Shown piece after piece: positions 1,180-34,580 of a DNA stretch of 41,339 bases. How positions within the stretch are numbered: position 1 is the first letter of the stretch; every line of letters begins with the position of its first letter. Under the pieces are notes generated by a model. The model made no database searches. It was not told the DNA's origin and saw nothing but the letters and a program-made list of their open reading frames with translations. This DNA is from a virus, in the IMG/VR virus record IMGVR_UViG_3300047202_000202, positions 1-41,339 of that record. One strand, 5' to 3'. The position numbers and the translations under genes are program-made.

Positions 1180-2946
1180 ATGGCTGCGCAAACAAAGTCA
1201 AAGAAGAAAAGGGTAACGAAACCAATAACCATAACCCCGCTAACGGTAGAGCAGCGGCGGTTTGTTATTGGTTTATTGGCACGGGGTTTTACCACCCCGC
1301 AAATAAATAAGCGAGCCGCATTATTTGAGGATCCTTTTCACATTACACCGAACACCGCTTGCATAATGAGACGGGAGAATAAACTAAACTTTTCAAAGCT
1401 CGTGAGCGAGGGTAAAATGCTTGGGTTGGCTGAGGGATTGGCTAAGAAAGAAGAGCGAGTAAGATTATTGCAGGAACTGGCGTATGAACTGCGCGAGGAC
1501 CTGCTCCATAAGGAGAAAAAAGAACGAAAGATATGGTTGAGGCGCTTGAAGGGATATGGGCAAGGGGTTAATTTTTTTACCCAACCGTTCTTTGAGTTTA
1601 ATCAGGGAGAAATTCAACAGCTGCGTGGAGTTCTTGATGATATTGCAAAGGAATTAGGACAGCGGGCGAAACCAGATGATAAGATATTGGGAGCTGGTGA
1701 GGAGACCAAGGATTTTCAAATTCCAGCCGACGCCCTTGCGTCTTCTTTTATTGATGTTTATCGTGATATTCGTGATCGTAAGCACATGGAGTACTTGTTG
1801 AAGGGTGGTCGCGGATCCACAAAGTCCTCATTCACATCTTTGGTTATTATTTATTTACTAATCACTAACCCTGGAATACATGCAGCTGTAATGAGACAGG
1901 TTGCTAACACACTGCGGGATAGTGTTTATAGTCAACTTGTATGGGCAATTGGATTTCTTGGATTATCTGATAAATTTAAGTGCATTACCAGTCCTCTTGA
2001 GATTGAGTATTTACCAACCCATCAAAAAATATACTTTAGGGGGGCGGATAAACCTGAGATGATTAAGTCCATCAAACCAACCGCAGGTTATATTGCAATA
2101 CTTTGGTTTGAGGAATTGGATCAATTTCATGGCCCTGAGGCTATTCGTAAGATTGAGCAGTCTGTTTTGCGAGGTGGCGAAGAAGCTTGGGAGTTTAAAA
2201 CTTATAACCCACCGAAAACGGCAGCAAACTGGGTGAATAAGTACATCCAGATTCCTAAGGCGAGTCAGTTTCAACACCATTCAACCTATCTTAGTGTTCC
2301 ACCAGAATGGTTAGGGCAAACATTTATCAATGAGGCAGAACACCTACGAGATGTAAATCCACCAGCGTATGAGCATGAACATATGGGTATTGTTACAGGA
2401 ACAGGTGGACTAGTCTTTGAGAATACCGTACTTCAAAAGATAACTGATGAGGAGATTGCTCAATTTGACCACGTTTTACATGGGTTAGATTGGGGATATT
2501 TTCCAGACCCGTTCTGTTATGGTAGAATGCACTACGATGCTGCAAGACTCACACTTTATATCTTTGATGAGTATCGAGTTAATAAGAGATCCAATAGATT
2601 GGTGTATAGAGACCTTGTAAAGCGGGGATTAAAGTCGAGTGATTTGATTATAGCCGACAGTGCGGAACCAAAGAGTATTGCAGACTTTCGAGAATACGGG
2701 GCAAATATCCGGGGTGCGGAGAAGGGACCGGACAGTGTAGACTATTCAATAAAGTGGTTGCAAAGTTTAAAGGCAATTATTATTGATCTAGAACGTGCTC
2801 CATACCATGCCGAAGAATTTTTAAACTATGAATTGGAGCAGGACAAGGATGGCGAGTTTATTAGTGCGTACCCAGATCGAAATAATCATGCTATCGATGA
2901 TGTTCGTTACGCGACTAATTTAATTTGGCGAAAGCGAGGCCAATAA
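1180..2946 (+). CDS. terL: Terminase large subunit with small-subunit-like N-terminal extension
   Basis: A DNA-packaging motor of the PBSX/terminase_3 type, 588 residues. The ATPase has a Walker A motif GGRGSTKSS at 209-217 and a Walker B segment AILWFEELD at 306-314. The nuclease domain begins at HGLDWGYFPDP (D437 a likely metal ligand). Enzymes of this type are usually about 420-450 residues. The extra length is an N-terminal region of about 170-190 residues that starts with a basic tail and a helix-turn-helix-like segment (residues about 20-70, LTVEQRRFVIGLLARGFTTP onward), followed by a charged helical stretch. That segment looks like phage small-terminase or DUF2280 DNA-binding domains. 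No separate small terminase gene is visible next to it, so one protein may both recognise and cut the DNA. It starts with ATG after a weak purine-rich stretch (GAGGAACGAG). The repeat/palindrome region lies just upstream. Confidence 0.93.
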   Translation: MAAQTKSKKKRVTKPITITPLTVEQRRFVIGLLARGFTTPQINKRAALFEDPFHITPNTACIMRRENKLNFSKLVSEGKMLGLAEGLAKKEERVRLLQELAYELREDLLHKEKKERKIWLRRLKGYGQGVNFFTQPFFEFNQGEIQQLRGVLDDIAKELGQRAKPDDKILGAGEETKDFQIPADALASSFIDVYRDIRDRKHMEYLLKGGRGSTKSSFTSLVIIYLLITNPGIHAAVMRQVANTLRDSVYSQLVWAIGFLGLSDKFKCITSPLEIEYLPTHQKIYFRGADKPEMIKSIKPTAGYIAILWFEELDQFHGPEAIRKIEQSVLRGGEEAWEFKTYNPPKTAANWVNKYIQIPKASQFQHHSTYLSVPPEWLGQTFINEAEHLRDVNPPAYEHEHMGIVTGTGGLVFENTVLQKITDEEIAQFDHVLHGLDWGYFPDPFCYGRMHYDAARLTLYIFDEYRVNKRSNRLVYRDLVKRGLKSSDLIIADSAEPKSIADFREYGANIRGAEKGPDSVDYSIKWLQSLKAIIIDLERAPYHAEEFLNYELEQDKDGEFISAYPDRNNHAIDDVRYATNLIWRKRGQ

Positions 2947-4353
2947 ATGTTTACTAAGATTTTTCAGTGGATTCAGGAGGTATTCAAAATGATACGGGGA
3001 ACCGATGTCAAACAGGCATTAAAGGTTGATGTTGCTATAAGTGAAATAATGGCAAGTGCACTCCAAACTTGGAGTTTAATGTACGCTAATCAGGCGGGTT
3101 GGTTAAATAAGGATATAAAATCACTTAATCTATCCGCTGCTATTGCTGGTGAAATTGCTCGAGCAGTTACGATTGAGATGGAGGTAACATTTTCTGAGGG
3201 TGCGCGAGCCAAGTATTTGGCTGAGCAGTTGGATCCAATCATTCCTAAATTACGTCAATGGGTTGAGTACGGAGTTGCAAAGGGGGGTTTAGTTCTGAAA
3301 CCGTATCCAGATGGAAAGAATATCGGGATTGACTGTGTGCAAGCAGATCAACTGTATCCTGTAACCTTTGACGCCAACGGAAATATAACCGCGTGCGTGT
3401 TTAGTGATCAGCAACAGGTTGGAAATAAATATTATACTCGATTGGAGTATCATACAATGACTGATGTAGGGTGCGAAATTCGCAATCAGGCGTTTAGATC
3501 CAATGATCGAGAAGTACTTGGAATTCAATGCAGTTTATTGGAGGTTGATGTGTGGAAGGATTTAAAACCGGAAGCGACTATTACTGGCATTGAAAAACCT
3601 CTCTTTGGGTATTTTAGGTACCCAATGGCGAACAATATAGACACCCTAAGTCCATTAGGAATATCCTGTTTTGCTCGGGCGGCGGTTGGAGATAAGTGCT
3701 TAATTCAACAGGCGGATGAGCAGTGGTCGAACTTACTTTGGGAATTTGAGAGTGGGCAGCGAGCTTTATACGCGGATGTGGTGGCCTTTGGGCGGGATGA
3801 GGATGGAAAACCGGTCTTACCAATGAAACGATTGTATCGTGCATTGAATGGGAGTGCAGATATTGGGGATGAGGGGTTTTTCAAGGAGTGGTCACCATCC
3901 TTCCGCGAGGCGTCGATTCTTGCTGGGTTAGAGGCAATACTTCGCCGAATTGAGTTTGTTTGTGGGCTGGCTTATGGGACTCTTTCGAACCCAGAGACGG
4001 TTGATCGAACCGCCACGGAGTTAAAAATTAGTCAACAAAGAAGTTATGCGACAATTACTGATACCCAGAAAGCCCTTAAAGAAACCTTAGACCAACTGCT
4101 TTATGGGATGGATACTTGGGCGACCTTAAATAATCTGGCTCCGGCAGGATCGTATGAGGTAAATTATGATTTTGACGACAGTGTGATTGTGGACAAGGGC
4201 CTGCAGTTTCAACAGGATATGCAGTTGGTTTCGGCTCGTCTTATGAGTGACGTTGAATTTCGTATCCGTAATTTTGGGGAGAGTGAGGAAGAGGCTAAAA
4301 AACAGTTGGCCTTGGTTGCGCCTGAGCTTAGTTTATTTGATGGAGGAGTATAA
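2947..4353 (+). CDS. Portal protein (SPP1 gp6-like)
   Basis: A 468-residue portal of the SPP1 gp6-like family. It forms the dodecameric ring at the capsid vertex through which DNA is packaged and ejected. The N-terminal pattern (amphipathic start, then a stretch resembling 'VKQALKVDVAISEIMASALQ'), the central acidic region and the position between terminase and minor head protein all fit. Two starts are possible. ATG 2947 directly follows the terminase stop and gives the N-terminus usual in this family. ATG 2989 has a much stronger ribosome binding site (AGGAGGT, 2975-2981). I keep 2947 because the extra 14 residues resemble homologues, but internal initiation at 2989 is plausible. Confidence 0.9.
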   Translation: MFTKIFQWIQEVFKMIRGTDVKQALKVDVAISEIMASALQTWSLMYANQAGWLNKDIKSLNLSAAIAGEIARAVTIEMEVTFSEGARAKYLAEQLDPIIPKLRQWVEYGVAKGGLVLKPYPDGKNIGIDCVQADQLYPVTFDANGNITACVFSDQQQVGNKYYTRLEYHTMTDVGCEIRNQAFRSNDREVLGIQCSLLEVDVWKDLKPEATITGIEKPLFGYFRYPMANNIDTLSPLGISCFARAAVGDKCLIQQADEQWSNLLWEFESGQRALYADVVAFGRDEDGKPVLPMKRLYRALNGSADIGDEGFFKEWSPSFREASILAGLEAILRRIEFVCGLAYGTLSNPETVDRTATELKISQQRSYATITDTQKALKETLDQLLYGMDTWATLNNLAPAGSYEVNYDFDDSVIVDKGLQFQQDMQLVSARLMSDVEFRIRNFGESEEEAKKQLALVAPELSLFDGGV

Positions 4354-4488: not shown

Positions 4489-6699
4489 GTGCTCACGCCT
4501 TCTGCCTTTGATGCCATTGCTACTAAAATAACGGATTTGTATGAGGAGTACAATCAGTCTGTTATTAATGATATTGCTAGGCGAATGGTGAAGATGGGCA
4601 AGATAATGCCCTCAGCCGCATGGCAAATGCAGCGACTTATTGAATCTGGTAAGACGTTTGACCAAGCATATTATGCAATTGGTAACTTATTAAAAAGGAA
4701 CAAGAAAGTACTTCGGGATGCATTTAGGGCAGCAGGTGTAAAGTCAATAAAGTTTGATGATCGGGTTTATAAAGCCGTTGGTTTAAACCCGCTTCCACTA
4801 AACCTATCCCCTGCAATGTTAAATGTACTAATGGCGGGGTTAGAAAAAACTGCAGGTGTGGTGGAGAACTTTGTGAAGACAACCGCCCTGGATGCAAGTC
4901 AAACTTTTATAAAAGCTACGGATCTTGCGTACATGCAGGTGAGCTCAGGTGCAATGTCCTATAATGAGGCGATTCGTGCGGGTATAAAGAAGGTTGCTGC
5001 CGAGGGAATTCATATTATAAATTATGCTACAGGACATAAGGATCAACTGGATGTGGCGATGAGACGAGCAGTACTTACTGGTGTTGCTCAAACAGTAGGG
5101 CGGTTATCAATAACACGGGCTGATGAATTGGGTTGTGATCTGGTTCAAACTTCTGCGCATATAGGTTCACGACCAACGCACGAACCTTGGCAGGGAAGAG
5201 TATTTAGTAGATCTGGTAAGGATCCGAAATATCCCAGTTTTTTGGGAGAGACTCATTATGGTGAGGTGGATGGATTATGCGGTATAAATTGTAGGCACTC
5301 CTTTTATCCATTTTATAAGGACATTTCAAGAAACGCGTATACTCAGGAAACATTGCGGGAGTATAAAAACAAGATCGTACAATATAATGGCGAGGACATG
5401 TCCGTGTATGAGGCCATTCAAAGACAACGAGCAGTTGAGCGTGAGATTAGGAAGGTAAAACGGGAGGCCAACGCTTTATTTGCGGTTGGGTTAGATAACG
5501 GGGAAGAAGTTATCCGGGTAAAAAGTTTGCAGGCGCAGATGCGAGATTTTATTGAGCAGACTAAATTAAGCAGACAACCAGACCGCGAGGGTGAAAGAAT
5601 TAAGTCTATAAAACAGGCACTTAGGGAAATAAAAGAGCCATCATTAGAGGTTGTCGATTTAAAATCCAAACAAAAACCTGTGCCTATACTTCCACATATA
5701 CCTGTAATACCTGGATTGGTTGGAGCAGTTGAGTTGATTGCAGGTGAAGTGGTCGCGGCAGTTTCGGCAATTTCATTAACGACCGCTAGTGGGGTGGGTG
5801 CAGCGGGTGCAATTGGTACGACGACGGGTATATTGGAAGCGGCGGCAATGGAAGCAGTGGCAGCAGGAGTGGAGGCACAGAAAAAACTTGATCTAAAATT
5901 AAAGATTCCCCTTGGTGTGTCTCCTACTGGAAAGCCTTACCGAGTTTCTCCTGATGGAACAACGATATACACGAGTGAGAAACCGATGCCTGGTAAGGGA
6001 GCGTTTGATTCAGAGCGCGTTGTTATTAAGGATGATGGGGAGGCTATTTTAAAAACTGATTTATCGCGCATGTACGGTTGGGGAACATTTAATATAGAGC
6101 AAGGTTTTGCGCATCGTGAAGTTGGCGCGTATGAGTTAGATCAAGCTCTTGGGCTTAATATGGTACCGAGAACAACAGCGTTTATAGAGAATGGGGAGTA
6201 TAAAAGTCTTCAACAGCTTGTTCTTGATTCTCGGACAGGAGGTGAGACTTTTTTATTTTTAACAGAGCATGATCTTTGGGATGCTTTGGTGGACAAGGAA
6301 GAACCGGGTAAAATGATACTCTTGGATATAATAATAGCCAACGAGGATCGTCATACAGGTAACTGGTTAGTAGCAGGTGATCATTTATACGCGATAGACA
6401 ACGGTTTAGGGTGTATTAGAACAACTGATAATTGTAAAAATTATTTACGCCTTTATTCTCGATTTAATTTTTATGACATAGCGCGTAATAAAAACTACGA
6501 ACAAATGTGGTATTTACCAAAAAAATACCGTGCAGGATTGCAGGATTTAGTCTCGTCAGGAGAACTAAAGCGTATTTTAGGAAAAATGTTACTGGGGGAT
6601 AAGGATAGAGATGGTGCAATAAAATTAATGGAAGCAGCAGAAAAACGTGCTATAAGCCTTCTTGCGAGTTGGGATGATGTGTTTACGGATGTATATTAA
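4489..6699 (+). CDS. Minor head protein (Phage_min_cap2) fused to a PI3/4-kinase-like domain
   Basis: A 736-residue protein in three parts. Residues about 1-330 match the minor capsid protein 2 family: HIGSRPTHEPWQG at 224-236 and the Cys/His cluster GLCGINCRHSFYPF at 262-275. Such proteins sit near the portal and can enter the cell with the DNA. Residues about 395-465 are a Pro/Ala/Gly-rich hydrophobic linker that could cross or insert in membranes. Residues about 480-736 look like a kinase of the PI3/4-kinase/HipA-like fold: helix REVGAYELDQALGLNMVPRT, catalytic loop DIIIANEDRHTGN (N618, D620, H622, N625) and metal-binding AIDNGL (D637, N638). All key catalytic residues are present, so activity is likely. 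The substrate, protein or lipid, is unknown. The start is GTG 4489; no in-frame ATG lies nearby and the ribosome binding site is weak. Confidence 0.85.
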   Translation: MLTPSAFDAIATKITDLYEEYNQSVINDIARRMVKMGKIMPSAAWQMQRLIESGKTFDQAYYAIGNLLKRNKKVLRDAFRAAGVKSIKFDDRVYKAVGLNPLPLNLSPAMLNVLMAGLEKTAGVVENFVKTTALDASQTFIKATDLAYMQVSSGAMSYNEAIRAGIKKVAAEGIHIINYATGHKDQLDVAMRRAVLTGVAQTVGRLSITRADELGCDLVQTSAHIGSRPTHEPWQGRVFSRSGKDPKYPSFLGETHYGEVDGLCGINCRHSFYPFYKDISRNAYTQETLREYKNKIVQYNGEDMSVYEAIQRQRAVEREIRKVKREANALFAVGLDNGEEVIRVKSLQAQMRDFIEQTKLSRQPDREGERIKSIKQALREIKEPSLEVVDLKSKQKPVPILPHIPVIPGLVGAVELIAGEVVAAVSAISLTTASGVGAAGAIGTTTGILEAAAMEAVAAGVEAQKKLDLKLKIPLGVSPTGKPYRVSPDGTTIYTSEKPMPGKGAFDSERVVIKDDGEAILKTDLSRMYGWGTFNIEQGFAHREVGAYELDQALGLNMVPRTTAFIENGEYKSLQQLVLDSRTGGETFLFLTEHDLWDALVDKEEPGKMILLDIIIANEDRHTGNWLVAGDHLYAIDNGLGCIRTTDNCKNYLRLYSRFNFYDIARNKNYEQMWYLPKKYRAGLQDLVSSGELKRILGKMLLGDKDRDGAIKLMEAAEKRAISLLASWDDVFTDVY

Positions 6700-6713
6700 A
6701 GAGGTAATTTACT

Positions 6714-6920
6714 ATGTTTACCTATGAAGTTTATCAACTAATAAACGAGGGTTATAAAGTTCTTGCTACTATTGAAGGTGAAGTGGTAACTGGATCTGGG
6801 GCAAAATGGATTGAGAAAACGTTGCGAGAGTATGGATGGCCAGGAGTAGATCCTAGGATTGTTTTTCATGGAATGTACGTATGGGCAGTGAAAGTTGATT
6901 CGAGGGCGCAAAGTGCGTAA
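6714..6920 (+). CDS. Small protein of unknown function in the head module
   Basis: A 68-residue protein with a good ribosome binding site (AGAGGTAA) 15 bases after the previous stop. It is mixed alpha/beta in appearance, begins FTYEVYQLINEGYKVLATIE, and has no Cys motif or membrane segment. It is the last gene before the promoter at 6935-6943 and so probably belongs to the first late transcript. I do not recognise a family. Confidence 0.7.
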   Translation: MFTYEVYQLINEGYKVLATIEGEVVTGSGAKWIEKTLREYGWPGVDPRIVFHGMYVWAVKVDSRAQSA

Positions 6921-6960: not shown

Positions 6961-7036
6961 AATTTCGCAAATTGCATGCGTAAAAAGGCAAGCGACCAGG
7001 TGCCGGCAACCACCTAAAACGCCTAGGACGTGAGAG
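6961..7036 (+). promoter_or_regulatory. Structured leader before the scaffold gene
   Basis: A stretch that can fold into nested helices. AATTT-CGC-AAATT is at 6961-6973. An outer stem GCGT (6978-6981) pairs with ACGC (7019-7022), and an alternative AGGC (6986-6989) pairs with GCCT (7021-7024). An inner hairpin AGGTG (6998-7002) pairs with CACCT (7011-7015) around the loop CCGGCAAC. It is more G+C-rich than its surroundings and ends just before the ribosome binding site AAGGAGA. It may be a 5'-UTR stabiliser, a regulatory RNA or a small self-cleaving RNA. I could not match it to a known riboswitch class. Confidence 0.45.
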
Positions 7037-7053
7037 TAAGGAGAACAGATAAA

Positions 7054-7668
7054 ATGAATAAAAAGGATCTTGAGAAGCTAGGACTAACTGCAGAAACCTT
7101 GGAAAAGGCTGGTTTAAAGATCGATGTACTGGAAGAGATTATTATTCTGCATGGTAAGGACATTGAGAAACATAAAACGGATTTGACCGCAGCCTTGACT
7201 GAGGCAACTGGGTTAAAAACTCAACTTACCGAAGCCAGCGCAACTATTGATAGTTTTAAAGCCATGAAACCGGAGGAACTTAAGGCCGCTGTTAATGACT
7301 ATAAGACTAAGTACGAAACTGCTCAGGCAGAGTCCATAGCACAATTGACCACCTTAAAATTCAACCATGCGTTGCAGGGAGCCTTGATCGATGCAAAGAT
7401 CAACGGCGTGGGAAAGGTTAAAAATACTAAAGCTATTCTGGCTCTCTTGGATGTTGAGTCCATCAAAAAGAACTACAATGAGAAGGATGATTCTTTTGTT
7501 GGTCTTAAAGAGCAGTTGGAAAAGGTTAAGCTCAACGATGGTTATTTGTTCGAGGACGAAGATCAACCCCCTAAAATTGTGATTGGGGGCGGTAATAAAC
7601 AAATCGTGGGTGATGCGGTAGTGAACGCGGCTAGAAAGGCTGCAGGACTATCGATACCTGAAAATTAA
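7054..7668 (+). CDS. Capsid scaffold protein (Phage_GP20-like)
   Basis: A 204-residue protein of the phage GP20 scaffold type, which guides assembly of the procapsid and is then removed. It opens MNKKDLEKLGLTAETLEKAG, has a coiled-coil middle (residues about 25-110, rich in Lys, Glu and Ala, with segment KTDLTAALTEATGLKTQLTE), and ends in a more structured C-terminal part ending AARKAAGLSIPEN. It lies directly upstream of the major capsid gene, the usual place. ATG 7054 is chosen over GTG 7030 because AAGGAGA at 7037-7043 is correctly spaced for it. Confidence 0.88.
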   Translation: MNKKDLEKLGLTAETLEKAGLKIDVLEEIIILHGKDIEKHKTDLTAALTEATGLKTQLTEASATIDSFKAMKPEELKAAVNDYKTKYETAQAESIAQLTTLKFNHALQGALIDAKINGVGKVKNTKAILALLDVESIKKNYNEKDDSFVGLKEQLEKVKLNDGYLFEDEDQPPKIVIGGGNKQIVGDAVVNAARKAAGLSIPEN

Positions 7669-7679: not shown

Positions 7680-8564
7680 ATGGCTCAGTCTATTGGTCTT
7701 GTGACCAAATTTATGCCTATTTTGGATGAAGTTTATAAATTCGCTTCGGTTACGGCGCGCATGGATGCAATGACTAAACCCGTTGATTTTGCTGGGGCTT
7801 CTGTTGTGGAGATTTTTACAACTACCCCTATTGGGTTGGGTACATACTCTCGTGCGCTTGGTTATCCAAAAGGACAGGTTGTGGGCGCTTGGGAAAGTTT
7901 TACTTTGGCGGCACAACGTGGTAGGGAGTTCAACATTGATCGAATGGACAACGAGGAATCACTTGGAATGGCATTCGGTACCTTGGTAGGTGAGTTCATC
8001 CGTACCCAGGTTGCACCTGAGATTGATGCGTATCGTTTTGCTAAGTACGCTGGAACTGGTTCCATTCAAACCGTTACCGGGGCAACATTAGCCAGCAACA
8101 GTATAATCGCTGCCGTCGACGCTGCAAAGGCTGCTTTGAATGCTTATGAAGTTCCGATGGAAGGGCGCTTACTGTATATGTCCAGCTTGTGTAAGGGATA
8201 CTTGGAGCAGGCTATTTCTCGTACGCTGGGAAATGATAATACGGCGGACAGGCGTTTACGTTTCTTTGATGGAATGGAAATTGTTGAGGTTCCGGCGGGA
8301 CGTTTTTACACAATAGTTACGCTGGATTCTGGTTCTGGTGGCGTTGACGCTGGTGGCTTTAGCAATGGTGGGGTAGGCATCAATTTTATGCTGCTTCACC
8401 CGTCGGCAGTTATTCAGGCAACAAAGTTGGCCAAGTTGAAAATTTTTTCCCCCGACGAGAATCAGGATTATGATGCCTGGAAATTCCAGTACCGGCTATA
8501 CCACGACGCCTTTGTTTACCCGCAAAAAGTCAAGGGTGTATACCTCCATAAGCTAGGAGCATAA
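7680..8564 (+). CDS. Major capsid protein
   Basis: A 294-residue protein with a strong ribosome binding site (AAGGAGA), directly after the scaffold gene. This is the position and size of HK97-fold major capsid proteins. It has the typical N-terminal helix region, a central segment resembling the E-loop/P-domain (GRLLYMSSLCKGYLEQAISR), and a C-terminal part ending in KFQYRLYHDAFVYPQKVKGV, a pattern frequent at the end of such capsid proteins. There is no N-terminal prohead protease gene and no obvious long delta domain, which agrees with a separate scaffold protein. It forms the icosahedral shell. Confidence 0.88.
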   Translation: MAQSIGLVTKFMPILDEVYKFASVTARMDAMTKPVDFAGASVVEIFTTTPIGLGTYSRALGYPKGQVVGAWESFTLAAQRGREFNIDRMDNEESLGMAFGTLVGEFIRTQVAPEIDAYRFAKYAGTGSIQTVTGATLASNSIIAAVDAAKAALNAYEVPMEGRLLYMSSLCKGYLEQAISRTLGNDNTADRRLRFFDGMEIVEVPAGRFYTIVTLDSGSGGVDAGGFSNGGVGINFMLLHPSAVIQATKLAKLKIFSPDENQDYDAWKFQYRLYHDAFVYPQKVKGVYLHKLGA

Positions 8565-10549: not shown

Positions 10550-10945
10550 GTGTCAACACCTGCTATAAAAACTCCGCAGGATGAAATTTTTATCGATCAA
10601 CCAAGTATGAAGGTTAAGTTGATATGGAACACTCATTTTCAACCCAAGTGGCAAGGACGGTATACGAACGTTCAAAAGTACGTTGATTCTGAGGTTTTAC
10701 GCTTGTGTGAACCTTTTATTCCGCTCTTAACGGGGATGTTGATCATGTCTGGAATTCTTGGTACTGACATTGGTTCTGGGGTAGTTTCTTGGACTGCGCC
10801 GTATGCTCGTTATCAATACTATTTGAAACGCGGTGTTGGAACCCAGACAGGACCTCTACGCGGTCCACATTGGTTCGTACGAATGAAGGCTGTTTATAAA
10901 GGTTTGATCATAGCAGGCGCTCAAAAGATTGCGGGCGGTGGATAA
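10550..10945 (+). CDS. Minor capsid protein / tail completion (Minor_capsid_2-like)
   Basis: A 131-residue protein starting with GTG. It carries the segment EPFIPLLTGMLIMSGILGTD followed by SWTAPYARYQYYLKRG and a GPHWFVRMKA motif, which is characteristic of the minor capsid 2 family (tail completion or neck proteins). It lies third in the connector block and starts one base after the previous stop. Confidence 0.75.
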   Translation: MSTPAIKTPQDEIFIDQPSMKVKLIWNTHFQPKWQGRYTNVQKYVDSEVLRLCEPFIPLLTGMLIMSGILGTDIGSGVVSWTAPYARYQYYLKRGVGTQTGPLRGPHWFVRMKAVYKGLIIAGAQKIAGGG

Positions 10946-10947
10946 AA

Positions 10948-11376
10948 ATGGCAGCGACAACGACTATTGAGGCAATAAAGAGTTACCTTAAGACCTATTC
11001 AGGGTTAAAGAGTAAGGCGCCTATGTGGGTTGATTTTTTAGGTCATAAGCCTACAGAGTATGCTATTATCCCACTTCCTGGTGAAAAGATTATTGAGACA
11101 TATGTAAATGGCAGCTCGTTACGGGCATTTCCATTTGCATTTCAAAGCATGGAGTCAACGGCCGATGAGCTGGCAAGACTTCAAACCAATGGTTTTTATG
11201 AGTCCTTGTCTGATTGGTTTGAGACTCAATCAGAATCAGGTATACTGCCAACGTTAAATTCTAATAAAGTGGCAGAGCGGATTGAGACTTTAGGTTGGGC
11301 ATTCCTGTTTGAGCAGGGAGAATCTAGTACTGGTATATATCAGATCCAGTGTCGTTTGGTGTATGAACAATCGTAG
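10948..11376 (+). CDS. Tail terminator / minor capsid protein
   Basis: A 142-residue protein in fourth place in the connector block, immediately before the tail tube genes. This is the usual slot of the tail terminator that caps the tube. It has an N-terminal helix (TTTIEAIKSYLKTYSGLKSK) and a C-terminal beta-strand ending IYQIQCRLVYEQS, consistent with the small alpha/beta fold of such proteins. The function is assigned from position and shape. Confidence 0.65.
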   Translation: MAATTTIEAIKSYLKTYSGLKSKAPMWVDFLGHKPTEYAIIPLPGEKIIETYVNGSSLRAFPFAFQSMESTADELARLQTNGFYESLSDWFETQSESGILPTLNSNKVAERIETLGWAFLFEQGESSTGIYQIQCRLVYEQS

Positions 11377-11391
11377 TTAAAGGAGATAACA

Positions 11392-11883
11392 ATGACTGCT
11401 ACTAAGGTAAAAAGAAGTCAGATTAAAACTTTTCTCGATGTTTCCGGTTTAGCGGATGGTTCAGAGTATGAATTGCTCGGGGATGGTGTGGTGGCTGGAA
11501 AAATTTCTATGAATCCTAAGGTTACCAATGAAACTTACATCAACCAGGATAACGCGAGTATAACGGTTGATAGTTATGCTCCCACCATGTCAATTGAGCA
11601 GGTAGCCAAGGTCGGTGATGCGGTCTTCGATTTTATTGACGGTCTTAGAATTAATCGCGCTGTTTTAGAGGCCGCAGAAACAGTTATCTGCAATGTTTGG
11701 TTGTATGATGCGGACGGTGCTCCTGGTGCCTATATTGCAGAGGAACAGGCCGTTTCAGTTCAAATCGACGATTTTGGTGGGGAGGGTGGTTCACCTGCGC
11801 GCATCAATTATACAATCAATTACATCGGTGATCCGGTTCCGGGTACCTTTGATGAGGATGATAGTACGTTCACTCCAGACTAG
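11392..11883 (+). CDS. Major tail (tube) protein, undecorated copy
   Basis: A 163-residue protein with a strong ribosome binding site (AAAGGAGAT). It has the features of siphophage tube proteins: a beta-rich core with repeated strand patterns, a conserved stretch KVTNETYINQDNASITVDSY and a C-terminal DFGGEGGSPARINYTINYIG. It is followed directly by a longer paralogue that shares both stretches. Tube subunits stack as rings around the tape measure protein. Confidence 0.85.
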   Translation: MTATKVKRSQIKTFLDVSGLADGSEYELLGDGVVAGKISMNPKVTNETYINQDNASITVDSYAPTMSIEQVAKVGDAVFDFIDGLRINRAVLEAAETVICNVWLYDADGAPGAYIAEEQAVSVQIDDFGGEGGSPARINYTINYIGDPVPGTFDEDDSTFTPD

Positions 11884-11892
11884 GAGCAAAAT

Positions 11893-12675
11893 ATGACAAC
11901 CAAAATTAAAAGAAGTTTGTTCAAAACATTTTTAAATATTGGTACTCTAATTGCTCCGGAATGGTCCATAGTTGGTCCAGGAGTGGTCACGGGAAGATTG
12001 GGGTATGATCCTAAAATCACCAATGAAACGTATATTGATGAGGATAATGCGAGTATAACCATTGATGGTTATGCCCCTACTTTTCCAATTGATATGGTTG
12101 CTAGGGTAAATGATCCACCCGCTGTTTTTGAGTTTATTGATTCGTTGCGTAAATCAAGAGCAATATTAGAGGATGCAGAAACTGAAATATGCAATGTACT
12201 ATTATATCAAACTCCGGCGGGTGGTTATTACTATGCTGAAAAGCAGGCCGTCAGTATTCAGGTAGAAGATTTTGGTGGAGAAGGTGGTTCACCTGCACGT
12301 ATTAACTATACGATCAATTTTTTGGGCGATCCTGTATCGGGCATATTTAAACCAGCGGCTCCGGCAACATTTGAGGCTAATCCAATTACTACAGTACTAA
12401 CTACAATGGTCATTGGAACCGCTGTACTTATCCCACTTTTTGCGGACGATCACAGCAATTTACTATACACGTCTTCCGTGATTAATGAGATTGATGAGGA
12501 AGTATTGACGTCAACCCTAGCAGGTGCTGACATTGTACAGAAGGTTGGTGTTACTGAGGTAAATCAGAGTGCTGCTGCTGCTTTAGCTGTGGGATTAAAT
12601 CATATTACCATCGAGGTAACTGTTGGTGAAGAGGTTAGTACTTACCGCGTTGATATAACCAGGGCAGCGGCGTAA
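11893..12675 (+). CDS. Second tail tube protein with C-terminal beta-sandwich domain
   Basis: A 260-residue protein. Residues 1-155 are a close paralogue of the preceding tube protein, with shared stretches KITNETYIDEDNASIT and EDFGGEGGSPARINYTINFL. Residues about 160-260 are an added domain with LAVGLNHITIEVTVGEEVST followed by YRVDITRAA, the signature of cadherin-like beta-sandwich (Ig-like) modules that stud phage tails. It has its own ribosome binding site (TAGGAG) overlapping the previous stop. The phage therefore encodes plain and decorated tube subunits as separate genes. In SPP1 the same effect comes from a frameshift. Confidence 0.82.
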   Translation: MTTKIKRSLFKTFLNIGTLIAPEWSIVGPGVVTGRLGYDPKITNETYIDEDNASITIDGYAPTFPIDMVARVNDPPAVFEFIDSLRKSRAILEDAETEICNVLLYQTPAGGYYYAEKQAVSIQVEDFGGEGGSPARINYTINFLGDPVSGIFKPAAPATFEANPITTVLTTMVIGTAVLIPLFADDHSNLLYTSSVINEIDEEVLTSTLAGADIVQKVGVTEVNQSAAAALAVGLNHITIEVTVGEEVSTYRVDITRAAA

Positions 12676-24921: not shown

Positions 24922-25122
24922 CTACTTTTTTGCCGGTTGCTTAGGCTTTGACCCAATCTCAACCATTTGAACCTGGCACTGATATTTCTTTTCACCGATC
25001 TGTAGTTTGCCAGTCCCGAAGAAACCCTGTGAACCTGTGCTAAACACTTTTGCGTTGGCAACCAACATACCAACAACGGTCCCATCACTCTTGAGCTCAA
25101 CTGTAACAACTGCTGCTGCCAT
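24922..25122 (-). CDS. Small protein of unknown function
   Basis: A 66-residue protein and the last gene of the leftward operon. Its start is set by GGAGG (25133-25129), which leaves six bases before ATG 25122; ATG 25125 is also possible. The sequence is strand-rich (AAAVVTVELKSDGTVVGMLV and GKLQIGEKKYQCQVQMVEIG), suggesting a small beta-barrel, with a basic tail. No family recognised. A 10-bp hairpin stands in the gap before it. Confidence 0.72.
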   Translation of the reverse strand: MAAAVVTVELKSDGTVVGMLVANAKVFSTGSQGFFGTGKLQIGEKKYQCQVQMVEIGSKPKQPAKK

Positions 25123-25166
25123 CATATACCTCCAAAACATTGAATTTGATGCAGGATTGCACCCAA

Positions 25167-25195
25167 CCATTCAGCAACAAAACGCTGCTGAATGG
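25167..25195 (-). repeat. Intergenic hairpin before the last leftward gene
   Basis: CCATTCAGCA (25167-25176) pairs perfectly with TGCTGAATGG (25186-25195) around a nine-base loop. No T-run follows on the - strand. It lies between two co-directional genes, about 40 bases before the ribosome binding site of the second. Confidence 0.8.
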
Positions 25196-25211
25196 ATACT
25201 ACTATCCTACT

Positions 25212-26054
25212 TTACCTCGATAAGACGTTGGGTATAATGCGCAGACTCTTTCCAACCGCTGCTCCACGCGATGCGCCCTCGGGACTGAAGTTATTTGATC
25301 CGCGCGATCTTACGCTGTAAAAACCTGTGGAAAAATGCTTGTAAGCTTCTTCAACCTTGCCAGTATAAATGGCCAATGCGCTGGTTGTTTGCTTACTTCT
25401 ATTTGCCTCTTCCTCTATGGCTGCTTGCTTCATCGCCTTTATGCAGTGAATTATCCAACTAGCCTTGAACACGAACGGCATTTCCTCGTGCGGTATATTC
25501 TTGAACTGGTAGTTGGCCGGTTTCAAACCACGACGTGCAATGTCAGCATACTGCTCTGGATACTTTATAACGAGTTCATGGCACCATTCCGTCATTGCTT
25601 TCGCTGCCATGCACATTATGACTACAACCCATTGATCATAAAGCATGGTTGCAATCTTACCACTGTCACCAGCGCCAAAGAAGCTCATAACATCGCCGGT
25701 TTTTTCTTTGCCATTTACACCTTTTCCTTTTATACTGCAAGTGGTATAATGCTTGGTATGCGTAACCTTTCCAATCAACCAAGCAAGTTGCCACATCCAT
25801 GGTTGAATTCCATTGAAAGCAATGGTGCCAGAATTAGAGTTGAACTTTCGCTCAGCTATCGCTTCTGCTTCTTTACTTGCCTCGATCAAAATTTCCTCAG
25901 GTAATATTGCATACTTGTCCATGAGTTTTTGAATGAGCACTGTTGCATTGGTGATCTCGCCTTCGAACGCACCACTGTCAATACCGGTCATTGCAGTTAG
26001 TTTGTAAATTTGCTCGATAATCTTTACGCGCTTTTCTACTGTAGTTGCAGTCAT
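25212..26054 (-). CDS. DUF2786-like protein
   Basis: A 280-residue protein with a good ribosome binding site (GGAGG). The N-terminal 55 residues fit the DUF2786 pattern: a helix KRVKIIEQIYKLTAMTG, a Glu-rich turn, and ATVLIQKLMDKYAILPEEI. A Trp-rich helical region follows (GIQPWMWQLAWLIGK), then KHYTTCSIKGKGVNGKE. DUF2786 proteins are common in phages and mobile elements and lack a proven function. The C-terminus is basic and Ser/Gly-rich, perhaps for nucleic-acid contact. It lies among early genes. Confidence 0.65.
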   Translation of the reverse strand: MTATTVEKRVKIIEQIYKLTAMTGIDSGAFEGEITNATVLIQKLMDKYAILPEEILIEASKEAEAIAERKFNSNSGTIAFNGIQPWMWQLAWLIGKVTHTKHYTTCSIKGKGVNGKEKTGDVMSFFGAGDSGKIATMLYDQWVVVIMCMAAKAMTEWCHELVIKYPEQYADIARRGLKPANYQFKNIPHEEMPFVFKASWIIHCIKAMKQAAIEEEANRSKQTTSALAIYTGKVEEAYKHFSTGFYSVRSRGSNNFSPEGASRGAAVGKSLRIIPNVLSR

Positions 26055-26081
26055 AAAAATCCTCCATTTAGACGGTGGATT

Positions 26082-26186
26082 CCGCCTTGTCCGCCCTCAA
26101 CCTTACAGTGGTTGGTTGAGCTGCTCTTATTTTGATCACGCTGTCAAGATAGCGGACAGGGCGGAGGGAGTTTTCACTCCCTCGCC
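26082..26186 (-). promoter_or_regulatory. Multi-hairpin leader before the DUF2786-like gene
   Basis: The 201-base gap 26055-26255 is non-coding and folds in competing ways. Hairpin A is GAGGGAGT (26164-26171) with ACTCCCTC (26176-26183). Hairpin B joins 26082-26094 to 26152-26164 (13 bp, one mismatch on the - strand), enclosing CTCAACC/GGTTGAG (26096-26102 and 26114-26120). A and B share bases at 26164, so they cannot both form fully. This is the geometry of an attenuator or a translational switch. No ligand class is recognised. Confidence 0.5.
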
Positions 26187-26255
26187 TGCTTTAAACTTTC
26201 ACCCGCAATTAAGCTCTACAGTGGTTCGCAAGTTTTCTTGCTTACTCGACCAATG

Positions 26256-26960
26256 TTACTTTTTTATTGAATCCATAAAATCGTGAATGAGGGTAATTAA
26301 CCGTGCAGCATTATCTTCATCCAAGCTTGGACTGCAGTTGACCTTTACAATTACATTGCCCACCGTTAAACTGTCCGGTGATAGGGTGATATTGTCCAAA
26401 ATTTTGTAGGTTGCGCTTTCATACGGTTTATGTCCAAATTTATCGATCAAACGGTCAGAGATAACTTTATTATTTTTTACAATTGTATCTCTGCGATTAT
26501 CGTTGGTCTTTTTTATCATCGCATAACCATACAATTCTTTGACGGTCTCAGTAATCTTCACATAATTGAACGTTCCGTCTTTTTTCATTGGAAAATTGTG
26601 ATGTGATTGGTAAGAACCGACCACGATCTTAGGTGAGTTCCAAGTATCCAATTTGACTGAGTAGGTGGAGTAAGAATCACTTCCATCATCCAACACAGTG
26701 AAAGTAGGATTAGATGAATCTTCGGAAAATTTATAAGAGGCTTTCTCAAAACCAGTGTTTTTCAACGCTGCTATAAGTGCTTTAGCAACTACAGTATTTT
26801 TTTCACGGGTTTTTAAAACTTCTAACCTGTTTGCCTCTCTCCTTGCAGCCTGTTGTGCTTCATAGGTCGCCTTACGTTCCTGCTCCTGTAATTCATACAA
26901 CATTTTCTTGCCTGCTTCGATCTGTGCCTGTAGTTCAATTGCTGTTAATTTAGTAGTCAT
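26256..26960 (-). CDS. Unknown early protein with N-terminal coiled coil
   Basis: A 234-residue protein from ATG 26960 (GGAGG upstream). Residues about 8-60 form a charged coiled coil (AQIEAGKKMLYELQEQERKA). The rest is mixed alpha/beta (residues about 85-130: TFTVLDDGSDSYSTYSVKLD) with no catalytic motif that I recognise. It lies between two small unknown genes in the leftward operon. Confidence 0.72.
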   Translation of the reverse strand: MTTKLTAIELQAQIEAGKKMLYELQEQERKATYEAQQAARREANRLEVLKTREKNTVVAKALIAALKNTGFEKASYKFSEDSSNPTFTVLDDGSDSYSTYSVKLDTWNSPKIVVGSYQSHHNFPMKKDGTFNYVKITETVKELYGYAMIKKTNDNRRDTIVKNNKVISDRLIDKFGHKPYESATYKILDNITLSPDSLTVGNVIVKVNCSPSLDEDNAARLITLIHDFMDSIKK

Positions 26961-27020
26961 AATAATCCTCCAGAATTTAAATGTTTGATTTTTTCTCATC
27001 AGTCCAGGTACTTTCTGGAG

Positions 27021-27038
27021 ACTCCGCCGAAGCGGAGT
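27021..27038 (-). repeat. Stable TTCG-loop hairpin in an early intergenic gap
   Basis: On the - strand this reads ACTCCGC-TTCG-GCGGAGT, a 7-bp perfect stem with an unusually stable C(UUCG)G tetraloop. No T-run follows. It lies between the 64-codon gene and the ribosome binding site of the next gene. Confidence 0.82.
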
Positions 27039-27044
27039 TTCGAA

Positions 27045-27239
27045 TTAGTTATCCAAATCCACGGTTTCTAAGTAACGAGGTGTACGACCCATCTTCATAA
27101 AAATTTCTAATCTTAGAATGTCAGAAACTCGTACCCAGATCCAACCTTCAAGAGTTTGATGGCAAATATAAACACCTTCACCTTGCCAATTAATTTTTTG
27201 ATCTTGGTATGTTCTTGTAATATCCTGTAAGTCTGTCAT
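27045..27239 (-). CDS. Small protein of unknown function
   Basis: A 64-residue protein with ribosome binding site GGAGG. It contains GEGVYICHQTLEGWIWVRVS, a strand-turn-strand pattern with aromatic residues, and an acidic C-terminus. No family recognised. It is preceded by a broken gene at 27260-27616. Confidence 0.65.
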   Translation of the reverse strand: MTDLQDITRTYQDQKINWQGEGVYICHQTLEGWIWVRVSDILRLEIFMKMGRTPRYLETVDLDN

Positions 27240-27259
27240 TTTATCCTCCAGTTTGATTT

Positions 27260-27616
27260 TTAAATTTTATTCCACATATTATTATTTACCCACAACTTCA
27301 TTTCACGGACAGTTTTGAACTCAGCAACCTGGTTAGTTCTGTATATTTTGACCTTGAATGTTTTATTAAGAGTTTTGAACCCTACAGCAACGGCAGAAGG
27401 TCCTAAGTTGATTGTAAATTGATTTCTATCCCAGCGCTGATAATGAATGTGCCAAACTTCTTTATTGAAAACAGATGAAAAATTGGCTGAAGCTTCTGTC
27501 ACGGTTGGTTGAATATGAACTTCATCAAATAAAGCGGTTCATGCTTTCTGTTCTGCTTCATCTAAATTTAACAGTTTAGCATACTTGGATAATCGGTTCT
27601 GCAAGTTGGTTGACAT
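27260..27616 (-). pseudogene. Early gene interrupted by an in-frame opal codon
   Basis: ATG 27616 has a strong ribosome binding site (GGAGGA) and opens MSTNLQNRLSKYAKLLNLDE. The frame stops at TGA 27541-27539 after 25 codons and then stays open to 27260. The downstream part has only a GTG (27502) with no ribosome binding site, so it is unlikely to be a gene of its own. Joined, the protein would be about 118 residues. After the stop it reads TALFDEVHIQPTVTEAS, then an aromatic-rich region (VWHIHYQRWDRNQFTINLGP) and ends in a helix. TGA ends many other genes here, so general recoding is unlikely. The options are a nonsense mutation, readthrough or a sequence error. It is the first gene after the promoter at 27910-27905. 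Confidence 0.62.
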
Positions 27617-27898
27617 GATAATTCCTCCAAATTAGAATGTAGTGCAGAATTACACTGGACCGCACTGGAAGATTCCAGTGCAGACACTATAATCCTGTTT
27701 TATTTACAATAAAATTTTTAATCTCCCAGTTCAAAACCCTACCACCTGCCATCGGAGTGAACCTACGTGCACACTCAGGATTTGAGGATTTTTACTTTGC
27801 GGTTTGAACCAGACTGTTCCCTGGAACTTTACTCCCCTGATATTAGGTTCCTAGGTACTGGGTTTTGTTTTTTGTTAAGGTTCTCTGTAGCGTGGTAC
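27617..27898 (-). promoter_or_regulatory. Long structured 5' leader of the second leftward operon
   Basis: The gap between the predicted start (about 27898) and ATG 27616 is about 280 bases and shows no gene. It can fold: a 9-bp inverted repeat GCACTGGAA/TTCCAGTGC at 27662-27681 with a two-base centre; an A/T-only hairpin TTTTATT-GTA-AATAAAA on the - strand near 27700; and long-range pairing of CAAAACCC (near 27733) with GGGTTTTG (near 27860). Leaders this long often control expression. I see no known riboswitch or tRNA. Confidence 0.5.
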
Positions 27899-27904
27899 AT
27901 TATC

Positions 27905-27910
27905 ATTATA
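27905..27910 (-). promoter_or_regulatory. Leftward promoter of the second early operon (-10)
   Basis: On the - strand TGCTATAAT gives a perfect extended -10 (TATAAT at 27910-27905). The -35 position holds ATGTAC, a poor match. Two palindromic sites lie upstream, centred at about -41.5 and -64.5 from the predicted start at 27898. The same layout stands at the other leftward promoter. Confidence 0.68.
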
Positions 27911-27932
27911 GCACACCTACCCTAGAAGTACA

Positions 27933-27970
27933 TAGACAAATGTCATGTATATTGCATGACAAATGTCATG
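27933..27970. promoter_or_regulatory. Operator pair upstream of the second leftward promoter
   Basis: Site 1 is TAGACAAATGTCATG (27933-27947, imperfect, centre 27939.5). Site 2 is CATGACAAATGTCATG (27955-27970, 7-bp arms with a 2-bp centre, centre 27962.5). The spacing is 23 bp. The same sequence pair is found at 37869-37906 and, by eye, nowhere else in the window. Two copies at two promoters of the same phage indicate a shared regulator. Confidence 0.8.
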
Positions 27971-27972
27971 CT

Positions 27973-28212
27973 TTATTTACGCGCATTTTTATGCACTTTT
28001 ATGGCTTTTCGCAGTGTGTTGGGATTAATTTTAAACATCATTGCAACATGCTTTAGACCGCGCATGTGCACATTGTATAGTAAGGATTCTTGAATGCCTT
28101 GACAGCAGGGTAAACGATCCTCCGGCAAAACAATCCAATGACCTTTATCATCTTGGTACCCATTCGGTTGGATAGTTCGGTTCTGTCGACCAAGATATTC
28201 TAATACTGCCAT
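27973..28212 (-). CDS. Small helix-turn-helix protein, candidate regulator
   Basis: A 79-residue protein from ATG 28212; TTG 28224 is too close to the upstream GAGGA. Residues about 53-72 (LKHVAMMFKINPNTLRKAIK) have the spacing of a helix-turn-helix, and the C-terminus is basic (HKNARK). The N-terminal 50 residues are unlike any family I know. Its stop codon is only two bases from the operator pair at 27933-27970, so it may bind there, but this is inference. Confidence 0.62.
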   Translation of the reverse strand: MAVLEYLGRQNRTIQPNGYQDDKGHWIVLPEDRLPCCQGIQESLLYNVHMRGLKHVAMMFKINPNTLRKAIKVHKNARK

Positions 28213-28220
28213 TTGTATGG

Positions 28221-28655
28221 TCAATCCTCATCCTCCTTCTTCCAACCATGCGCCGCAAGAATTTCATGAATATTAGGCGGTTTCCAATGTGCTGGTTTAA
28301 TAAGGTCTGTTGCGGATCCACGCATTAATCGAGATACTATAGTTTCTTGCGCACTTCGCGCGCGTTGTTTTTGCATGTTCGATGTCTGTACCTCCTCAAA
28401 CAACTCTTCCCATGGAAAACCATGCAAATGCGCTGTTCCAAGAGCAACTACCACTATGTCCACCAACGCGTCTGCAATTCCTGGAAGGTCTTCATAAATA
28501 TATGCTTGTTGTAATTCCATAACCTCCTCATGAAGGAATTTAACGCGAAAATCTGCCACGGCATTTTCAACATGGTGTGGAATATAATCTTCTTGATCTT
28601 CGGTAATGTAACCGAAATGCCTGTATAATAGTCCAACAGCATCAAAATTACTCAT
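28221..28655 (-). CDS. MazG-like nucleoside triphosphate pyrophosphohydrolase
   Basis: A 144-residue all-alpha protein from ATG 28655 (ribosome binding site TAGGAGT). It carries the MazG/PRA-PH metal-binding pattern: E-E-x-x-E in FLHEEVMELQQAY, followed by GIADALVDIVVVALGTA in place of the E-x-x-D helix. Such enzymes split NTPs or dNTPs to monophosphates plus pyrophosphate. In phages they clear a nucleotide (for example dCTP or dUTP) or counter host alarm nucleotides. It sits next to DNA polymerase and close to a TS-family enzyme and a dCMP deaminase, which favours a role in deoxynucleotide supply. Confidence 0.78.
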   Translation of the reverse strand: MSNFDAVGLLYRHFGYITEDQEDYIPHHVENAVADFRVKFLHEEVMELQQAYIYEDLPGIADALVDIVVVALGTAHLHGFPWEELFEEVQTSNMQKQRARSAQETIVSRLMRGSATDLIKPAHWKPPNIHEILAAHGWKKEDED

Positions 28656-28665
28656 AGTCTTACTC

Positions 28666-30411: not shown

Positions 30412-30616
30412 GACGTGGTTTCGCATTGAAAGCAATCTGTCTACTCTTACGACGACAGGGTTGGTGGTGGCTGCTTTTATTCTGCTTTTGTTTTTTAGGC
30501 CCACTATACTCAGGCATCGGTCCGTTGTAAACGGTTTTCTTCTTTGATTTTTTTTGAGTCAACCACTGCTTTATTAATTTGCATAGTGATTTTAAAAACT
30601 CTATGATTCGCTTCAT
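30398..30616 (-). CDS. Small basic protein of unknown function
   Basis: A 72-residue, strongly basic protein (pI clearly high). It starts with an amphipathic helix (MKRIIEFLKSLCKLIKQWLT), then a Lys-rich stretch and a Pro/His/Arg-rich tail. It fills the gap between the SAM methyltransferase and the polymerase gene and overlaps the latter. The ribosome binding site is weak. It is probably real from position and lack of other use, but unproven. Confidence 0.45.
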   Translation of the reverse strand: MKRIIEFLKSLCKLIKQWLTQKKSKKKTVYNGPMPEYSGPKKQKQNKSSHHQPCRRKSRQIAFNAKPRHGKN

Positions 30617-30626
30617 AATCGTCCAC

Positions 30627-32662: not shown

Positions 32663-32675
32663 AATAATTTCCTTC

Positions 32676-32700
32676 GAGGGCGGGTTTGTTACCCGCCCTC
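32676..32700 (-). repeat. 10-bp perfect hairpin before the deaminase gene
   Basis: GAGGGCGGGT (32676-32685) pairs perfectly with ACCCGCCCTC (32691-32700) around five bases. On the - strand it is followed by the ribosome binding site region (AAGGAA) without a T-run, as in the other early intergenic hairpins. Confidence 0.82.
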
Positions 32701-32714
32701 TTATATAACTAAAA

Positions 32715-33455: not shown

Positions 33456-33456
33456 A

Positions 33457-34383: not shown

Positions 34384-34580
34384 TTTATTTCCTCTGCTTT
34401 AGGCTCAAATCCTGGTAAGTATGGTTGTATAACTGAGTATGCACTTATTATCATGTTGATAGGATACTCACAACTGGCGCCTGGGTAGGTACAGGCGCCT
34501 AAATAATTTTTACAACCAGCACATTGTGGATAACCTACCATATAGGCTTTTTTACCTATACTCACAATTGTTTTGAGCAT
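34380..34580 (-). CDS. Small Cys-rich protein
   Basis: A 66-residue protein with a Cys cluster (QCAGCKNYLGACTYPGASCE) that could form a small zinc site, followed by a hydrophobic helix. It shares ATGA with the kinase/UDG-like gene, so translation is coupled. No family recognised. Confidence 0.65.
   Translation of the reverse strand: MLKTIVSIGKKAYMVGYPQCAGCKNYLGACTYPGASCEYPINMIISAYSVIQPYLPGFEPKAEEIK

What the first reader, a model, noticed from the sequence alone, without database searches (positions are those of the whole stretch)
4489..6699. Minor head protein carries a complete PI3/4-kinase-like domain
The N-terminal half is a Phage_min_cap2 head protein. The C-terminal 250 residues show a catalytic loop NEDRHTGN (N618, D620, H622, N625), a metal site AIDNGL (D637) and the helix usual in HipA/PI4-kinase-like folds. 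All catalytic residues seem intact, so this is not a relic. Head-completion proteins of the MuF class are known to carry toxin or enzyme domains. A kinase entering the cell with the DNA could act on host membrane or proteins at the first step of infection. A hydrophobic Pro/Ala/Gly linker (about 395-465) could help membrane transfer. I know of no described example with this exact pairing.
Basis: partly seen in the sequence, partly recalled or inferred. Interest (0 to 1): 0.82.

Follow-up and report, generated by a model that had tools for sequence, protein, structure and literature searches.

The report
Phage head protein carrying a kinase
A phage head protein ends in an apparently intact kinase of the PI4-kinase fold and is followed by a small partner gene that accompanies such kinases in many unrelated uncultivated phages, which suggests a virion-borne effector with its own dedicated control protein.

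Summary
The 736-aa ORF at 4489-6699 is a MuF-type minor head protein (Phage_min_cap2, E 4e-100) with a C-terminal kinase. The window's own Pfam kinase score is below cut-off, but a six-sequence profile matches human PI4-kinase type II (E 2e-9), the twelve best Foldseek hits are PI4KII, and every catalytic residue is conserved.

The claim of no precedent is only partly right. Fusing enzymes to MuF proteins is a known design (MuF toxins), and PI4K-like domains recur on MuF1, MuF2, portal and other late proteins in uncultivated phages. I found no paper describing this effector type in the open library.

The new result lies outside the given coordinates. A 68-aa gene at 6714-6920 follows the kinase. 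Its family (no Pfam, PHROG or PDB match, confident model) accompanies the kinase in all six MuF2 loci and most MuF1 and other loci. It is absent from kinase-less relatives; three rare bacterial copies exist. I read it as a cognate inhibitor. It could instead be an activator, substrate or packaging factor.

Lipid phosphorylation is unlikely, the hydrophobic linker is not conserved, and the carriers lack detectable integrases, unlike classical MuF toxins. Packaging, delivery, activity and inhibition are untested.

The parts
2947..4353 (+). portal protein gene directly upstream, the usual neighbour of MuF genes
   Evidence: PHROG 533 portal E 4e-113; SPP1_portal
4489..6699 (+). MuF2 minor head protein with C-terminal kinase, 736 aa
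4489..5589 (+). residues 1-367, Phage_min_cap2 (MuF2) head domain; many relatives end here
   Evidence: Pfam E 3.6e-100; about half of the relatives stop within a few residues of this junction
5590..5946 (+). residues 368-486, variable linker; hydrophobic Ala/Gly-rich stretch at about 403-450 not conserved in relatives
   Evidence: hydropathy comparison, alignment
5947..6696 (+). residues 487-736, PI4-kinase-type-II-like kinase domain
6052..6054 (+). K522, predicted ATP-binding lysine
   Evidence: invariant in six homologues
6340..6363 (+). catalytic loop NEDRHTGN (N618, D620, H622, N625)
6397..6399 (+). D637 of AIDNGL, predicted metal-binding aspartate
6698..6704 (+). ribosome-binding site (AAAGAGG) of the partner gene, overlapping the kinase stop codon
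   Evidence: read; every related partner gene checked there also has one
6714..6920 (+). 68-aa partner gene of an uncharacterised family that follows the kinase
   Evidence: AlphaFold2 pLDDT 92.4
7030..7668 (+). head scaffolding protein, next downstream head gene
   Evidence: Phage_scaffold E 4.5e-31

Best explanation
The protein is a MuF2 minor head protein whose C-terminus is a PI4K-type-II-like kinase used as an exchangeable virion-borne effector. Shown by sequence and models: the two-domain architecture, the fold, the intact catalytic residues, the exchange of the tail at a fixed junction in relatives, and the tight linkage of the kinase with a small downstream gene family. Inferred: the head domain carries the kinase into the capsid, it enters the next cell with the DNA, and there it phosphorylates a host target, more likely a protein than a lipid. 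The 68-aa partner, translated from its own ribosome-binding site right behind the kinase, most likely binds the kinase and keeps it off in the producing cell until packaging.
For: Domain and fold. Catalytic residues invariant in six independently found homologues. Modularity: relatives of about 40-65% identity either end at about residue 367 or carry other tails at the same junction; by eye, or with weak Pfam support, these include ADP-ribosyltransferase-like, GNAT-like, JAB/RadC-like, metallopeptidase-like and unassigned tails. In L021 the same kinase is a separate gene directly behind an unfused head protein, nested inside the fused clade at 100/98 support. Partner: a 3-of-4 leave-out profile recovers the held-out core member at E 3e-12 to 6.5e-7. 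With a broad profile the held-out window partner scores E 0.0023 and most MuF1-linked ones score 1e-5 to 1e-18, while the best hit in kinase-less loci is never below 0.4. 28 of 49 kinase loci have it within 800 bp downstream or fused. Over whole virus records it occurs in 19 of 22 kinase records (8 of the 11 not used for training) and in 0 of 14 kinase-less MuF2 records. It is fused to the kinase in L128, and tandem cassettes occur in L090, L095, L098 and L114. Precedent: MuF toxins with adjacent small immunity ORFs (PMC5576092, PMC11699363). [quoted passage not shown]
Against: No test of virion presence, kinase activity, toxicity or binding. The window and the two other roughly 41-kb kinase-MuF2 records show no tyrosine or serine integrase, whereas published MuF toxins are tied to temperate phages, so a classical toxin role is doubtful. 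The partner is not found nearby in 21 of 49 kinase loci, mostly divergent ones, of which three have a copy elsewhere in the locus. Its profile is not significant behind the kinases of HSTV-2, HCTV-6, HHTV-1 and phage Mx1, although a small ORF sits there in each. Three bacterial genomes and one phage record hold partner-like ORFs without an adjacent kinase. In some loci the partner domain is fused to the next open reading frame, which a pure immunity protein would not need.
Confidence: 0.55

Rival explanations
1. The kinase works inside the infected cell during head assembly: it phosphorylates phage structural proteins and the partner is its regulator or activator. It is not an injected effector.
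For: It is encoded in the head-gene block between portal and scaffold. In haloviruses HSTV-2 and HCTV-6 the kinase gene also lies among head and tail completion genes. No integrase was detected.
Against: Many close relatives have no kinase tail at all, so it is not needed for assembly. The tail position is taken by unrelated enzyme-like domains in relatives.
Confidence: 0.17
2. Classical MuF polymorphic toxin: the phage or prophage uses the kinase to kill or arrest competing cells, and the small ORF is lysogen immunity.
For: Same architecture and toxin/small-ORF order as Bxa, Apk2 and the MuF toxins of Jamet et al.. Linked small ORF family. Rare partner-like genes without an adjacent kinase in bacterial genomes could be orphan immunity genes.
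Against: No integrase in the window or in the kinase-carrying records L004 and L051, although three relatives with other tails have one. Jamet et al. found MuF toxins only in temperate phages.
Confidence: 0.2
3. A lipid kinase that phosphorylates a membrane lipid of the host during entry.
For: The nearest solved structures are PI4KII-alpha and PI4KII-beta. This phage has a hydrophobic linker.
Against: The long loop that PI4KII has between hinge and SxQ strand is missing. The hydrophobic linker is not conserved. The same fold also serves as protein kinases in CtkA, Fam20 and HipA, which are also Foldseek hits. Phosphatidylinositol is not a usual lipid of Bacillota, the likely host phylum (own knowledge).
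Confidence: 0.06
4. The small downstream protein is not an inhibitor but the kinase's activator, substrate or packaging chaperone.
For: In several loci its domain is fused to the N-terminus of the next open reading frame, and in L128 to the kinase itself, which fits joint delivery or regulation in cis. In L094 it lies before the kinase.
Against: Position and size match immunity genes of other MuF effectors. Partner-like genes without an adjacent kinase in bacterial genomes are easier to explain as immunity or unrelated use.
Confidence: 0.3

Closest known systems
MuF polymorphic toxins (Jamet et al. 2017, PMC5576092; Bxa, PMC11699363; Apk2, PMC12226406)
   Same: N-terminal MuF head domain (MuF2 = PF06152), gene after the portal, variable C-terminal enzyme at a fixed junction, small ORF directly downstream
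   Different: PI4K-like kinase effector, not found in the texts searched (the word kinase has 0 occurrences in Jamet). The partner family is new. The carriers show no integrase.
PI4-kinase type II (human PI4KII-alpha/beta)
   Same: Best profile and fold match; same NxDRxxxN and IDNGL motifs, hinge VPxT and SxQ strand in the same order
   Different: About 20% identity, missing loop, phage context, lipid activity unknown
SCO1664 family (TIGR03843), bacterial
   Same: Closest NCBIfam model, matching residues 540-641, E 2.9e-7
   Different: 30 bits against a cut-off of 172, so not a member; no head domain or partner known to me
HipA / CtkA / Fam20 kinases
   Same: Weaker fold matches
   Different: Only one of 45 relatives matches HipA_2 in Pfam; the partner has no similarity to HipB or other DNA-binding antitoxins in Pfam
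Polyvalent-protein kinases and MuF-zeta kinases (Iyer et al. 2017, PMC5512222)
   Same: Kinase domains in proteins thought to be injected with phage DNA
   Different: Those are Ser/Thr/Tyr-type kinases lacking the C-lobe, or zeta-type kinases. This one has a helical C-lobe and PI4K motifs.
Phage and halovirus proteins labelled PI3K/PI4K catalytic domain (for example HSTV-2 L7TJZ0, HCTV-6 gp16)
   Same: Same kinase fold in late structural gene blocks
   Different: Other N-terminal domains, and the small ORF behind them is not a detectable member of the partner family

Membership tests
MuF2 / Phage_min_cap2 head proteins (PF06152) | profile match over the head domain above cut-off | tested here: met
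   335.9 bits against 26.3
MuF2 / Phage_min_cap2 head proteins (PF06152) | gene directly after the portal and before scaffold and major head protein | tested here: met
   portal 2947-4353, scaffold 7030-7668, major head 7680-8564
MuF polymorphic toxins | variable C-terminal domain swapped at a fixed junction | tested here: met
   tails of 0-686 aa after residue 367 in relatives
MuF polymorphic toxins | small specific ORF directly downstream | tested here: met
   6714-6920 with its own ribosome-binding site and conserved linkage
MuF polymorphic toxins | carried by temperate phages | tested here: inconclusive
   no tyrosine or serine integrase in G000, L004 or L051 records; the records may be incomplete
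MuF polymorphic toxins | C-terminal domain toxic and neutralised by the small protein | not testable with these tools
   needs expression assays
PI3_PI4_kinase (PF00454) | score above Pfam cut-off | tested here: not met
   window 23.8 against 27.1 bits; close relative L004 passes with 42.9
PI3/PI4-kinase fold | structural match to solved PI kinases with catalytic residues in place | tested here: met
   Foldseek ranks 1-12 all PI4KII, E 7e-8 to 2e-6; residues invariant
PI4-kinase type II (as lipid kinase) | phosphorylates phosphatidylinositol | not testable with these tools
   loop between hinge and SxQ strand missing
SCO1664 family (TIGR03843) | score above curated cut-off | tested here: not met
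   30.1 against 172.4 bits
HipA toxin-antitoxin kinases | HipA profile and HipB-type DNA-binding partner | tested here: not met
   no HipA profile for the window protein; the window partner matches no Pfam family
Polyvalent-protein STY kinases (Iyer 2017) | loss of the C-terminal subdomain | tested here: not met
   helical C-lobe at model residues 183-265

The most novel reading that the evidence does not exclude
Tailed viruses share a two-gene cassette of a PI4K-fold kinase plus a cognate 70-90-aa inhibitor. It is plugged onto whatever virion protein is available (MuF1, MuF2, portal and others) and injected to rewire the host at the first step of infection, even by phages without lysogeny genes. 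Some bacteria keep orphan inhibitor genes as protection.
Probability: 0.3. Interest if true: 0.85.

Novelty: new variant of a known kind. Interest (0 to 1): 0.62.

Why it matters
Virion-borne enzymes that act before any phage gene is expressed are few (T4 Alt is the classic). A recurrent kinase with a conserved dedicated partner across MuF1-, MuF2- and portal-type proteins would be a new, easily testable class of early-infection effector and would suggest a function for a family that no searched library describes. The MuF effectors tested in the papers read here are ADP-ribosyltransferases and alarmone synthetases; a PI4K-fold kinase adds a different chemistry with a searchable partner gene.

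Tried and rejected
tblastn of kinase domains against 50,697 phage records: none for the window, L004 or L104 domains; only Myxococcus Mx1 and two haloviruses for L097. Searching genome contigs with the six-row kinase alignment failed for lack of a conserved stretch; a four-row one found four weak loci. Testing the partner behind isolated-virus kinases: a small ORF is there each time but the profile is not significant, so I do not count it as support. Pattern searches for the partner in viral contigs found no further relatives. An alignment meant to model kinase and partner together in L128 was dropped, because the kinase C-lobes aligned to the partner region. Partner fold against PDB: no match below E 0.2. 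Membrane transfer by the linker was rejected. Pseudokinase was rejected (all residues present and invariant). The invariance of DRHxxN in the 45-sequence set was not used as evidence, because the scan pattern selected for it; K, E and the metal D lie outside that pattern and are still at least 90% conserved. Literature searches in the held open library found no paper describing a phage MuF-PI4K protein; subscription journals are not covered.

Full report
What is there. The window is a whole IMG/VR virus record of 41,339 bases. Its late block reads terminase (1180-2946), portal (2947-4353), the protein in question (4489-6699), a 68-aa gene (6714-6920), scaffold (7030-7668) and major head protein (7680-8564). 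The 736-aa protein matches Phage_min_cap2 over residues 2-356 (E 3.6e-100) and PI3_PI4_kinase weakly at 608-640 (E 4.9e-5, below cut-off).

The kinase is real. Relatives L003, L004, L048 and L051 carry the same head-kinase fusion, and in L021 the kinase is a separate gene directly behind an unfused head protein. These were found through the whole protein or the head domain, not the kinase motif. K522, R543, E544, D613, N618, D620, R621, H622, N625 and D637 are invariant among the six. L004 passes the Pfam cut-off. A profile of the six matches PI4KII-beta in the PDB at E 2.4e-9. AlphaFold2 gives pLDDT 76.5 and pTM 0.81, and the twelve best Foldseek hits in the PDB are all PI4KII, followed by CtkA, Fam20 and HipA among others. 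Compared with PI4KII, the loop between the hinge and the SxQ strand is missing.

The tail is a module. Among about 80 relatives of the head protein (about 40-65% identity), many end within a few residues of position 367. Others carry different tails at the same junction, which by eye or weak profile match include ADP-ribosyltransferase-like (L009), GNAT-like (L003, L025, L048), JAB/RadC-like (L058, L081) and metallopeptidase-like (L043, L047) domains. This is the pattern described for MuF toxins, whose MuF2 domain is PF06152 (PMC5576092).

The kinase family is wider than this pairing. A motif scan of IMG/VR returned 52 loci. Of 45 kinase ORFs scanned, 42 match PF00454, ten carry Phage_Mu_F and two carry a portal domain. 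Others carry a short motif of the form PRDxxGRFxxGG before the kinase. The six MuF2-context kinases form one clade (95/91), with the unfused L021 nested inside. BFVD lists related folds in phages and haloviruses.

The partner gene. Directly behind the kinase in the window, L003, L048, L021 and L051, and one gene further in L004, lies a small ORF with its own ribosome-binding site. The four core sequences recognise each other when left out (E 3e-12 to 6.5e-7) and the profile finds nothing convincing in kinase-less MuF2 loci. The ORFs behind the MuF1-type and other kinases belong to the same family. With each left out in turn, most are recovered at E 1e-5 to 1e-18; the window's own scores 0.0023; L048, L021 and L004 are not recovered significantly by the broad profile; the best hit in kinase-less loci is never below 0.4. 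With the full profile 28 of 49 kinase loci have the partner within 800 bases or fused, typically 10 bases before to 30 after the kinase stop, and none of about 66 kinase-less loci does (the 66 was entered by hand and includes near-duplicates, and 22 of the partners trained the profile). Over whole virus records it is in 19 of 22 kinase carriers, including 8 of 11 not used for training, and 0 of 14 kinase-less MuF2 phages. L128 has it fused to the kinase; L090, L095, L098 and L114 have tandem cassettes. No Pfam, PHROG or solved-structure sequence match of note exists. The AlphaFold2 model of the window's partner is confident (pLDDT 92.4) and has no PDB match below E 0.2.

Limits of the link. 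In about 1,130 bacterial genomes of four phyla only three partner-like genes appeared. None has a kinase directly beside it. One (L155) lies in the same gene cluster as a 1464-aa protein with a C-terminal kinase, about 0.6 kb upstream of that ORF. One (L154) lies about 0.3 kb from a CRISPR array. One phage record holds a copy away from its kinase, and in L094 the partner precedes the kinase. Behind the kinases of HSTV-2, HCTV-6, HHTV-1 and phage Mx1 a small ORF is present but is not recognisably of this family.

Interpretation. The simplest reading is an exchangeable virion-borne kinase effector with a cognate control protein, most likely an inhibitor that protects the producing cell before packaging. 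The architecture and the small downstream gene match MuF toxins, where adjacent small proteins of Bxa and Apk2 are immunity proteins (PMC11699363). [quoted passage not shown] One feature differs: MuF toxins were reported only in temperate phages, whereas the window and the kinase-carrying records L004 and L051 show no integrase, although relatives with other tails (L015, L029, L077) do. The window also encodes its own DNA polymerase, primase, thymidylate synthase and dCMP deaminase. This favours an early-infection role over lysogen competition, but the records may be incomplete.

Host and substrate are not known. Terminase and head-protein relatives are mostly from phages of Bacillota such as Blautia phage Montmirail. 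Protein phosphorylation is more likely than lipid phosphorylation for the reasons given; this is inference.

Novelty. The design, an enzyme on a MuF protein, is known. The effector class and its partner family are not described in the papers I could search. I file it as a new variant of a known kind.

Noticed in passing
L083 4965-7175 and L084 3046-5235: The MuF2 head protein is interrupted inside the invariant GWN|CRHSFYP motif by inserts of about 160 and 330 aa that look like inteins (TPNHPIL block, C-terminal HN|C).
   Followed up: partly
L093, L097, L098, L108, L113, L117, L123, L129; L004 4704-5351, 5308-5979 and 7976-8443; L058: A short recurrent motif of the form (N)PRDxxGRFxxGG or PRDPKGxSTGGQF/W precedes enzyme-like domains encoded in phage head-gene blocks; L093 holds four copies in one ORF. 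It could be a capsid-loading or processing signal.
   Followed up: partly
L154 1051-1308 (bacterial genome): A partner-like gene without a kinase lies about 0.3 kb from a CRISPR array with 12 repeats; a possible orphan immunity gene.
   Followed up: partly
L155 464-4855, minus strand (bacterial genome from the phylum search around a Bdellovibrionales genome): A 1464-aa protein with a hydrophobic, signal-like N-terminus ends in the same kinase domain; a partner-like gene lies 0.6 kb upstream.
   Followed up: partly
L048 4995-8156, L003 6001-8544, L009 1009-3579: MuF2 proteins with several effector-like domains in a row (one or two GNAT-like domains plus kinase; GNAT-like plus ADP-ribosyltransferase-like).
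   Followed up: no
HSTV-2 10647-12119 (NC_020159), HCTV-6 gp16: The halovirus kinase gene lies between head and tail completion genes and has a different N-terminal domain; the small gp17 overlaps its end.
   Followed up: partly
window 1180-2946: The terminase large subunit has about 180 extra N-terminal residues not covered by most phage terminase hits, and no small subunit gene is obvious; a possible fused terminase.
   Followed up: no
window 24922-41312: The non-structural part encodes DNA polymerase A, primase-helicase, two DNA methyltransferases, thymidylate synthase, dCMP deaminase, uracil-DNA glycosylase and a Lar-like antirestriction protein, without integrase.
   Followed up: partly
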